In this document: positions 27,857 to 30,554 of the stretch, piece after piece
Layout: every line of letters starts with the position of its first letter
Position numbering within the stretch: the stretch's first letter is position 1
DNA from: Chlamydiota bacterium
GTDB lineage: Bacteria; Actinomycetota; Thermoleophilia; Solirubrobacterales; Solirubrobacteraceae
Direction of reading: 5' to 3'
DNA length: 32,779 nt
Assembly: GCA_903970125.1 (NCBI GenBank)
Contig: CAJCHW010000214.1
Span: 1-32,779, forward strand
Notes under the pieces: generated by a model
What the model was told of the DNA's origin: nothing
Databases searched by the model: none
The model's input: only the letters and a program-made list of their open reading frames with translations
Program-made: the position numbers and the translations under genes

Positions 27857-29149
27857 GTGGCAGCGTTTACGATCGAGCGCCGCGATCGCTCAAGCTCGGC
27901 GCGCGCCGGCAGCCTGAGCACAGCTCACGGGGTGCTGCATACGCCGGCGTTCGTGCCGCTGGCGACCAAGGCCACGGTCAAGGGCCTGCTGGCCGCGGAG
28001 GTGGCGGCGCTGGGCTACGAGATGGTGCTCGGCAACACCTTTCACCTGCTCGTCAATCCGGGTACCGATTTGATCGCGCGCCTCGGCGGCCTGCACCGGT
28101 TCATGGGCTGGGACGGGCCGATCATCACGGACTCCGGTGGCTTTCAGGTCTTCTCGATGGGCCACGGCAGGGTCTCTGAGGAGATAAAGGGGTCAAACCG
28201 CCGCCGCCTGCCGGCGGCGGACGACGATAATTCCCAGCCGTCCGGCGCGGTGCTTTCCATCGACGAGCAAGGCGTGCGGTTTCGCTCCTACGTCGATGGA
28301 CGTGAGTTCTTTTTGACGCCGGAGGGGTCGATGTCGGCACAGGCCGATCTGGGCTCGGATATCGCGCTGGCCTTCGACGAGTGCACGCCCTTTCACGTTG
28401 ACCGCGATTACACCGCGCGCTCGACCGAACGCACCCACAGGTGGCTGAAGCGCTGCCTGGCCTGGCACGGCGAGCACGGCCCCGCGGGCCAGCTCGTATA
28501 CGGCATCTCCCAGGGCGGGGTCCATGAGGATCTGCGCCGTCAGTCAACCGCGACTGTGGCCTGTAGCGGCGCCGACGGCATCGCGATCGGCGGCTCGCTG
28601 GGGGCCACCAAGGCCCAGATGCACGAGGTCGTGGGCATGGCGATCGCCGAGCTCGGAGGCGAGCACGAGCTGCGCCCCCGCCACCTGCTGGGCATCGGCG
28701 AGATCGATGACCTGATCGCGGGCGTCGAGCTGGGAATAGATACCTTTGACTGCGCGATGCCGACGCGCCTTGGCCGCCACGGCAGCGCGCTCGTGGCAGA
28801 CGGCGAGCAGGGCGAGGATGACAGCGGCGCGCCGCGCCGCTGGCGCATCGATTTGGGCAAGCGCCACTGGCGCACCGACGAGCGGCCACTGCAGCCGGGG
28901 TGCTGCTGCACGGCGTGCGCGACGGGGCTCTCGCGCGCGTACCTCAGCTACCTGGTGCACGCCAAGGAGCTGACGGCGGTGCGCTTGCTGAGCGCACACA
29001 ACCTCGCCTTTCTCGCGCGCCTGATGGCCGACATGCGCGCGGGGATCCTGCAAGACCGACTGCCCGAGGTGGTTGCAGGCTGGCGTGCGGGACGAGCATT
29101 CCAGGCGCCGCCGCGAGCGCATGGCGCGGCGCCCGCGACGGGCGCTTGA
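27857..29149 (+). CDS. tgt: tRNA-guanine transglycosylase
   Basis: 430 residues. The enzyme swaps guanine-34 of tRNAs with GUN anticodons for a queuosine precursor. ITDSGGFQVFS holds the general-acid/base Asp92, and GIDTFDCAMPTR the nucleophile Asp298. GIGEIDDLI and YGISQGG shape the base pocket. The zinc site reads Cys349-x-Cys351-x2-Cys354 with His381. The Cys354-His381 spacing is 27 rather than the usual 26, owing to one extra residue before SRAYL. A polar insertion near residues 112-132 (Arg-rich then Asp-rich) lengthens the protein beyond the usual 370-390. No other queuosine gene is in the window. Confidence 0.94.
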   Translation: MAAFTIERRDRSSSARAGSLSTAHGVLHTPAFVPLATKATVKGLLAAEVAALGYEMVLGNTFHLLVNPGTDLIARLGGLHRFMGWDGPIITDSGGFQVFSMGHGRVSEEIKGSNRRRLPAADDDNSQPSGAVLSIDEQGVRFRSYVDGREFFLTPEGSMSAQADLGSDIALAFDECTPFHVDRDYTARSTERTHRWLKRCLAWHGEHGPAGQLVYGISQGGVHEDLRRQSTATVACSGADGIAIGGSLGATKAQMHEVVGMAIAELGGEHELRPRHLLGIGEIDDLIAGVELGIDTFDCAMPTRLGRHGSALVADGEQGEDDSGAPRRWRIDLGKRHWRTDERPLQPGCCCTACATGLSRAYLSYLVHAKELTAVRLLSAHNLAFLARLMADMRAGILQDRLPEVVAGWRAGRAFQAPPRAHGAAPATGA

Positions 29150-29175
29150 CTGGAGTACGTGCCGTGTGATACAAA
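29146..29175 (+). promoter_or_regulatory. Sigma70-type promoter of a candidate small RNA
   Basis: TTGACT (29146-29151, 5 of 6) and TACAAA (29170-29175, 4 of 6) are spaced by 18 nt. The -35 overlaps the last codon and stop of tgt. It is the best -35/-10 pair in the window and no plus-strand gene follows, so it should drive a non-coding transcript beginning near 29182. Confidence 0.5.
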
Positions 29176-29181
29176 CTAGGT

Positions 29182-29340
29182 GGGACGGCTGTCACCATGT
29201 CGGCTGCGTGTGGAGTGCGGCCGCTGGAGCCACCAATTGGACGGCTACGGCAGGGATTGCCGTGACAGGTGACACTCTGCTTAGTCCGCAAGGACGGCTG
29301 GCTGTTCGGGGGCCCTGCTTTGGCGGGGCCCCCTACTTAT
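29182..29340 (+). ncRNA. Candidate structured small RNA, unknown class
   Basis: A stretch of about 155 nt with a promoter before it and a strong terminator at its end, and no credible open frame. By hand it folds into a four-way junction. P1 pairs 29190-29196 with 29268-29274 (7 bp, perfect). P2 pairs 29201-29207 with 29217-29223 (7 bp, one G-U). P3 pairs 29228-29231 with 29243-29246 (4 bp). P4 pairs 29247-29252 with 29258-29263 (6 bp, perfect, directly abutting P3). A fifth stem, GTCC/GGAC (29284-29295), is capped by a GCAA tetraloop. It does not match tRNA, SRP RNA, 6S or tmRNA features I know. Prediction only; no expression evidence. Confidence 0.45.
29308..29340 (+). terminator. Strong terminator at the end of the candidate RNA
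   Basis: 29308-29318 pairs perfectly (one T-G pair) with 29323-29333, an 11-bp GC stem with a TTTG loop, followed by TACTTATT. It would end the candidate small RNA and also any read-through from tgt. Confidence 0.65.
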
Positions 29341-29354
29341 TGGCGGGCCCCCAC

Positions 29355-30554
29355 CTATTTGGTGTTTTCGGCGACGAGCTGCTTGAGCGCGCTTGCGGTC
29401 TGCTGCGCGTCCGAGTACACAACCTGACGCAGCGTGACAGCCTGCTGCGGCGAGGTCACGACCACGACGGCAGCGATCACGATGGCCACTGCGGCCAACG
29501 CGAGTAGCACGCCGAGCACGCGGCGCCCGGCCCCCGAGCGCGCGGGCTGTTGCGGCCCTTGGGCGCGCACGGGGTCCCGGCGCGCATCGCCGGGCGCGGG
29601 CCGCCGGGGAGTCAGCGCGTGCGTCGGCCTCTGCGCAGCGCGCGCCCTGGCGCCGGTGCTTGGCGCAGCAGGCAACAGCGTCGTGGCGCGCGTGGCCTCC
29701 GAGGCTCCTCGCTGGGGTTTGAGCCCGGCGCCGCCATCGGAGACCGCCGTTGCCATCTCGTGCGCGTCGGCAAAGCGTTCACCGGGCTCAAGTGCCAGAG
29801 AGATCGCGACGGCATCTGCCAGGCCTGCGGGCACAGCGGCCACGAGCGCGTCCAACCGCGCGGGATCCTGTTCTTGCTGCTTGAGCGCGAGCTCGGTCAG
29901 CGACCCGGCCTCGTAGGGCAGGCGCCCAGAGATGAGCTGGTAGGCAACGACGCCGAGCGCGTACAGGTCGGCGCCGGGTCCCGCCTCCTCGCCGCGGGCC
30001 TGCTCGGGTGCCAGATAGGCGGCAGTGCCGAGCACGGAGCCGACCTGGGTGATGCTTGATTGCTCGGTCGCCTTGGCGATACCGAAGTCGGCAAGCTTGA
30101 CCTGGCCCTCCAGCGAGCGCAGAAGGTTGCCGGGCTTGACGTCGCGATGGACGACCCCGTGCCGGTGGGCGTAGTAGAGACCCTCGCAGGCCTGCTCGAT
30201 GATTGACACCGCTTCGGGCACCTCCACCCAGCCCTGGTCGCGCAGGATCTCAGCGCAGGAGGAGCCCTCGATGTACTCCATCACGATGAAGTGCTGACCG
30301 GAGCGCTCATCCAAGCCGGAGTCGAAGATCTGCACCACGTTCGGGTGAATCAGCCGTGCCGCCGCCTGGGCCTCGCGCTGGAAGCGCGAGACAAACGCGG
30401 GGTCCTCGGCCAGGTGCTCGGCGAGCAGCTTGACCGCGACCCGGCGCTCCAAGCGCAGGTCCAAAGCCAGGTGCACGGTGGACATGCCACCGTAGCCCAA
30501 CCGGCGCTCCAGGCGGTAGCGGCCCGCGATCTCGGTGGCATCGACGGCGCTCAT
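29355..30554 (-). CDS. Membrane-anchored Ser/Thr protein kinase (Hanks type)
   Basis: 399 residues. The kinase domain (about 11-270) has the glycine loop GYGGMSTV, Lys42 in VAVKLL, the catalytic loop HRDVKPGN (Asp138), DFG at 156-158 and APEQ. All catalytic residues are kept, so it should be active. A Pro/Ala/Arg-rich juxtamembrane linker (about 275-345) leads to one transmembrane helix (346-367) and a short outer tail of about 32 residues without PASTA repeats. This is the PknB-like layout with a reduced sensor. The start ATG 30554 has GGAGAG at good spacing. It lies 16 nt after the Thr-rich lipoprotein gene, in the same operon. No cognate PP2C phosphatase is in the window. Confidence 0.92.
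   Translation of the reverse strand: MSAVDATEIAGRYRLERRLGYGGMSTVHLALDLRLERRVAVKLLAEHLAEDPAFVSRFQREAQAAARLIHPNVVQIFDSGLDERSGQHFIVMEYIEGSSCAEILRDQGWVEVPEAVSIIEQACEGLYYAHRHGVVHRDVKPGNLLRSLEGQVKLADFGIAKATEQSSITQVGSVLGTAAYLAPEQARGEEAGPGADLYALGVVAYQLISGRLPYEAGSLTELALKQQEQDPARLDALVAAVPAGLADAVAISLALEPGERFADAHEMATAVSDGGAGLKPQRGASEATRATTLLPAAPSTGARARAAQRPTHALTPRRPAPGDARRDPVRAQGPQQPARSGAGRRVLGVLLALAAVAIVIAAVVVVTSPQQAVTLRQVVYSDAQQTASALKQLVAENTK

What the first reader, a model, noticed from the sequence alone, without database searches (positions are those of the whole stretch)
29146..29340. Candidate new structured small RNA with its own promoter and terminator
Seen: a TTGACT-18-TACAAA promoter, a hand-folded four-way junction closed by a perfect 7-bp stem (29190-29196/29268-29274) with three inner hairpins, a GCAA-capped hairpin, and an 11-bp terminator stem. 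No plus-strand gene follows before a convergent kinase gene, so a riboswitch role is unlikely and a free RNA of about 155 nt is the simplest reading. It matches none of the RNA classes I recognise. Inference: a trans-acting or protein-binding RNA.
Basis: partly seen in the sequence, partly recalled or inferred. Interest (0 to 1): 0.75.

Follow-up and report, generated by a model that had tools for sequence, protein, structure and literature searches.

The report
tRNA-derived RNA locking its own anticodon
A small RNA gene in a soil bacterium turns out to be a remodelled transfer RNA whose own tail is built to pair with and hide its anticodon, an arrangement kept by matching mutations in relatives and absent from the RNA family library we searched.

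Summary
The RNA lies between tgt (tRNA-guanine transglycosylase) and a convergent kinase in a Solirubrobacteraceae genome. Two relatives of the same genus carry, in the same place, a recognisable tRNA-Asp(GUC) followed by a tail that is exactly antisense to its anticodon arm (16-18 bp), a GNRA hairpin and a terminator. Two genomes of another family in the class carry the same design without tgt beside it. Over five sequences 13 pairs change on both sides (0/500 shuffles); 43 other tRNAs of one relative have at most 7 nt of downstream antisense, against 13-15 here. Folding strongly favours the lock over the cloverleaf (15-20 kcal/mol). In the window the tRNA 5' half has decayed (40% identity), while lock core and GNRA hairpin are 26/26 identical to a relative, so selection seems to act on the locked form. 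The element is rare: 3 of 24 genomes in the genus, 2 of 103 in the other family. No Rfam family covers it except plain tRNA, which matches only the relatives. Transcription is unproven and function inferred: a tRNA-derived, probably non-translating RNA, possibly a Tgt ligand in this genus.

The parts
27857..29149 (+). tgt, tRNA guanosine(34) transglycosylase, immediately upstream
   Evidence: TIGR00430 equivalog, 395 bits against cut-off 306.75
29146..29175 (+). Promoter-like site TTGACT-18-TACAAA; the -10 lies where the relatives have the tRNA D-arm
   Evidence: Sequence; rarity; not conserved in relatives
29161..29182 (+). Decayed tRNA 5' part (acceptor 5' strand and D-arm equivalent)
   Evidence: 10 of 25 columns identical to G016, against 21 of 25 for G006 and G016; alignment A3
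29190..29201 (+). Anticodon-loop/arm equivalent (TGTCACC-A-TGTC), 5' strand of the lock helix, one bulged A at 29197
29202..29222 (+). Relict T-arm hairpin; the T-loop motif TTCGAGT is lost
   Evidence: MFE; alignment
29222..29232 (+). Acceptor 3' strand, discriminator G and CCA, conserved
   Evidence: 10 of 11 columns identical to both relatives
29228..29246 (+). Inner hairpin ii (AGCC/GGCT); a GCC/GGC pairing is kept in all three tgt-linked copies
29247..29263 (+). Inner hairpin iii
   Evidence: MFE
29264..29274 (+). Antisense strand of the lock helix (GACAGGTGACA)
   Evidence: covariation
29284..29295 (+). GNRA hairpin GTCC-GCAA-GGAC
   Evidence: 12 of 12 identical to G016; GCCC-GAAA-GGGC in G006
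29308..29341 (+). Terminator, 11-bp stem plus TACTTATT
   Evidence: terminator-like hairpins at the same place in all four relatives
29355..30554 (-). Convergent PknB-like Ser/Thr kinase gene
   Evidence: NF033483, 354.8 bits, below that model's 450 cut-off

Best explanation
The locus encodes a tRNA-derived noncoding RNA with a built-in lock. The ancestral form is a tRNA-like module with anticodon GUC followed by a tail that copies the anticodon arm in reverse complement, then a terminator. When the tail is transcribed it pairs with the anticodon arm, breaks the cloverleaf and hides anticodon and acceptor end, giving a closed junction with the T-arm inside. The product is therefore most likely a stable, non-translating tRNA-like RNA. 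In this genus it sits at the 3' end of tgt and presents (unlocked) or withholds (locked) a U-G-U anticodon loop, so the likeliest role is a ligand or sensor of Tgt or of another protein that reads tRNA-Asp. The window copy has lost its tRNA 5' half and T-loop and keeps only the locked form. Shown by computation: tRNA ancestry, conservation and covariation of the lock, predicted energies. Inferred: transcription, non-translating nature, any link to Tgt.
For: Relatives G006 and G016 have an ARAGORN/Rfam tRNA-Asp(GTC) at the syntenic site with 18- and 16-bp antisense. Further members G311 and G443 in another family. Covariation: 6 double-changed pairs in 3 sequences, 13 in 5 sequences with 0/500 shuffles. 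Controls: other G016 tRNAs have at most 7 nt of Watson-Crick antisense; tRNA-Asp pattern hits elsewhere extend to at most 10 bp. Lock favoured by 15-20 kcal/mol and formed as soon as the tail emerges. Window keeps 14/14 lock-core and 12/12 GNRA positions against 10/25 in the 5' half (P 0.0004 for the core). A canonical tRNA-Asp exists elsewhere in all three genomes, so this copy is spare.
Against: Only five members found. The folds are equilibrium predictions; a cloverleaf formed first and processed by RNase P could escape the lock, so G006/G016 may still yield a working tRNA. No expression data. The tgt link is absent in G311/G443, whose loop has C33 and so lacks U-G-U; any Tgt role would be confined to one genus. 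The fitted alignment A7 leans towards the structure (the unfitted A3 still shows the signal).
Confidence: 0.62

Rival explanations
1. A functional second tRNA-Asp gene whose precursor carries a folding trailer; the trailer is removed and the lock merely controls maturation. The window copy is a pseudogene.
For: G006/G016 cloverleaves score 55.5 and 49.7 bits with encoded CCA, GUC and discriminator G. RNase P and 3' nucleases normally free tRNAs from longer precursors (general knowledge).
Against: In G016 the element scores below the ordinary tRNAs; a canonical tRNA-Asp is present; C33 and no CCA in G311/G443; the window keeps the lock, not the tRNA.
Confidence: 0.2
2. The window copy is neutral debris of such an element, with no present function.
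For: tRNA signature lost; core fold without terminator z only -0.7; 21 of 24 genus genomes lack the element.
Against: 26/26 identical lock-core and GNRA positions against G016 while the other columns are about 51% identical; fourfold-degenerate tgt sites between the same genomes are only 46-59% identical.
Confidence: 0.15
3. A bidirectional terminator and 3' UTR of tgt and the kinase, with the structure serving only mRNA 3' end formation or stability.
For: Convergent genes and a symmetrical terminator stem.
Against: Relatives with adjacent tgt and kinase have no insert; members with other neighbours elsewhere; the covarying lock is not needed for termination.
Confidence: 0.08
4. A trans-acting RNA whose antisense segment captures the canonical tRNA-Asp anticodon loop.
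For: Window tail holds CGTGACAGG, complementary to CCTGTCACG of the genome's own tRNA-Asp.
Against: Only 5-9 nt in trans against 15-18 bp in cis, and stem positions follow the cis partner.
Confidence: 0.07

Closest known systems
tRNA (Rfam RF00005)
   Same: G006, G016, G311 and G443 contain a full cloverleaf with GTC anticodon.
   Different: Tail antisense to the anticodon arm, conserved and covarying; the window copy no longer matches the tRNA model.
Pseudo-tRNA tRNA-Other of Bacillus cereus (PMC3399842)
   Same: tRNA-like RNA outside translation beside normal tRNAs.
   Different: The passages read describe no self-antisense tail; no sequence link tested.
Bacterial Y RNA YrlA (tRNA-like domain; PMC7790460)
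   Same: Noncoding RNA with a tRNA-like domain; the locked form is likewise a long helix leading to a junction that bears a T-arm (structure of YrlA from general knowledge).
   Different: No YrlA match in Rfam scans; whether the genomes have Ro60/Rsr was not tested.
T-box leader RNA
   Same: RNA pairing to a tRNA anticodon (general knowledge).
   Different: Here the tRNA is in cis, pairing covers the whole arm, and no gene lies downstream to be regulated.

Membership tests
tRNA | Cloverleaf recognised by ARAGORN or RF00005 | tested here: not met
   Window: none. Relatives: met.
tRNA | T-loop TTCRANT | tested here: not met
   Window has GTGGAGT there; relatives keep it.
tRNA | Aminoacylated and used on ribosomes | not testable with these tools
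   Needs acid gel and polysome data.
Anticodon-locked tRNA-like RNA (defined here) | Antisense of the anticodon arm of 11 bp or more downstream of the T-arm | tested here: met
   Window 11 bp with one bulge; relatives 15-18 bp.
Anticodon-locked tRNA-like RNA (defined here) | Compensatory changes in the lock helix | tested here: met
   7 of 16 lock pairs change on both sides in 5 sequences.
Anticodon-locked tRNA-like RNA (defined here) | Terminator after the tail | tested here: met
   relatives.
T-box riboswitch | Leader upstream of a regulated gene, Rfam match | tested here: not met
   No Rfam match; the next gene is convergent.
YrlA Y RNA | Rfam match and rsr/Ro60 neighbour | tested here: not met
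   No match; neighbours are tgt and a kinase.

The most novel reading that the evidence does not exclude
A new class of conditional, self-locking tRNA: a tRNA whose tail cages its anticodon and which is opened or fixed by a tRNA-reading enzyme (in this genus Tgt, fed by salvaged queuine), making it an RNA sensor of tRNA modification.
Probability: 0.13. Interest if true: 0.88.

Novelty: new variant of a known kind. Interest (0 to 1): 0.62.

Why it matters
tRNA-like RNAs outside translation are known but few, and in the literature searched here I found no described case in which a tRNA carries a conserved antisense copy of its own anticodon arm. If the lock is real it is a simple way to turn a tRNA into a regulatory RNA, and the tgt-linked copies offer a direct test of whether a modification enzyme is controlled by a tRNA mimic next to its own gene.

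Tried and rejected
blastn with the window element alone gave only chance hits (the best, L002, lies in an FKBP-type coding region near an SRP RNA by inspection). Trailer as a second tRNA copy: local similarity to G016 tRNAs no better than shuffles. Lock as a general feature of tRNAs: no; tRNA-Val(CAC) showed 14 pairs, but only by counting three G-U, with 7 Watson-Crick in a row. Weak model hits in the family are tRNA-Asn and tRNA-Gln. Viral contigs and a phylum sample: nothing beyond 10 bp of lock. A linker pattern over the 84,980-species set found only the two known relatives plus one hit without tRNA or model match. Carriers are not a clade on the tgt tree, but that tree is poorly resolved. 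Queuosine biosynthesis: queA not found in any of 24 genus genomes. Literature searches found no matching description.

Full report
What is there. The finding lies in a 2.66-Mb draft genome (G000); two same-genus contigs are public as Solirubrobacterales isolate palsa_744 (G006) and Solirubrobacteraceae isolate CRAIB_MAG44 (G016). The element stands between tgt (27857-29149 +) and a convergent kinase gene (29355-30554 -). The window has no Rfam match; sub-threshold matches are not credible.

What it derives from. In genomes G006 and G016 the same tgt-kinase gap holds a tRNA-Asp(GTC) shortly after tgt, then a tail and a terminator-like hairpin. Aligned to these, the window keeps CTGTCAC, the acceptor 3' strand with CCA, a linker block and the GNRA hairpin, but its tRNA 5' half is only 10/25 identical and its T-loop is gone. 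The tail of the relatives contains the reverse complement of the anticodon arm: 18 bp in G006 and 16 bp in G016.

Is it more than chance. For 43 other tRNAs of G016 the longest downstream Watson-Crick antisense of the anticodon arm is 7 nt, against 15 and 13 for the elements. On the three tgt-linked copies, 6 pairs change on both sides and 92% of cells pair, against 30-43% when the partner is slid. A covariance model found a further copy in another family of the class, G311 (E 3.6e-4), and a pattern search found its relative G443: both have a GTC tRNA-like module, 15-16 bp of lock and a terminator, and their tails are also predicted to pair with the D-arm. They stand near folP, not tgt. Over all five, 13 pairs change on both sides, 0 of 500 shuffles reaching that (this alignment is fitted to the model, so it leans towards the structure).

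Distribution. 3 of 24 genus genomes; no other in 146 family and 232 order genomes by model; 2 of 103 genomes in the second family by pattern; no other in samples of class and phylum. Related tgt-kinase junctions without it are short. The pattern is patchy, so the element is either old and mostly lost or has moved; the tgt tree cannot decide.

Mechanism. For the four full copies the locked fold is 15-20 kcal/mol below the cloverleaf and is predicted as soon as the tail appears; whether a cloverleaf formed earlier is rescued by processing is open. All three tgt-linked genomes have a canonical tRNA-Asp elsewhere, and the element's tRNA scores below G016's ordinary tRNAs; its body is nearest tRNA-Gln(CTG), not tRNA-Asp. 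In the window, lock core (14/14) and GNRA hairpin (12/12) are identical to G016 while other columns are 51% identical; the promoter-like site falls where the D-arm was and would start the RNA near the lock (inference). The simplest reading is a tRNA-derived RNA kept for its locked form. The tgt link suggests a Tgt ligand: for the mammalian enzyme the minimal motif is UGU in a seven-base anticodon loop (PMC8136771), present here and buried by the lock. queA is not found in the genus, so Tgt there would depend on salvaged queuine or another route (inference). G311/G443 have C33 and no tgt neighbour, which argues against Tgt as the general partner.

Verdict. The structure is real and conserved, 'matches no class' should read 'tRNA-derived and locked', the promoter is plausible only for the window copy, and function and expression are untested.

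Noticed in passing
L170 1501-1650, L178 1482-1340 (-): In the second family the tail is also predicted to pair with the D-arm (about 30 bp in all), and the anticodon loop has C33 (TCGTCAC).
   Followed up: partly
L163 (G016:C20:57300-57700): A second, aberrant tRNA-Phe(GAA)-like gene with an odd D-arm, 28.5 bits, below the tRNA cut-off.
   Followed up: no
L162 (G016:C20:10300-10600): A 59-nt tRNA-like match of 30 bits, seen only.
   Followed up: no
genus of the window: tgt was found in about 10 of 24 genomes of the genus and queA in none, suggesting a patchy, salvage-type queuine pathway.
   Followed up: partly
window 29262-29270: The tail holds CGTGACAGG, a 9-nt complement of the canonical tRNA-Asp anticodon loop of the same genome (L094).
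   Followed up: partly
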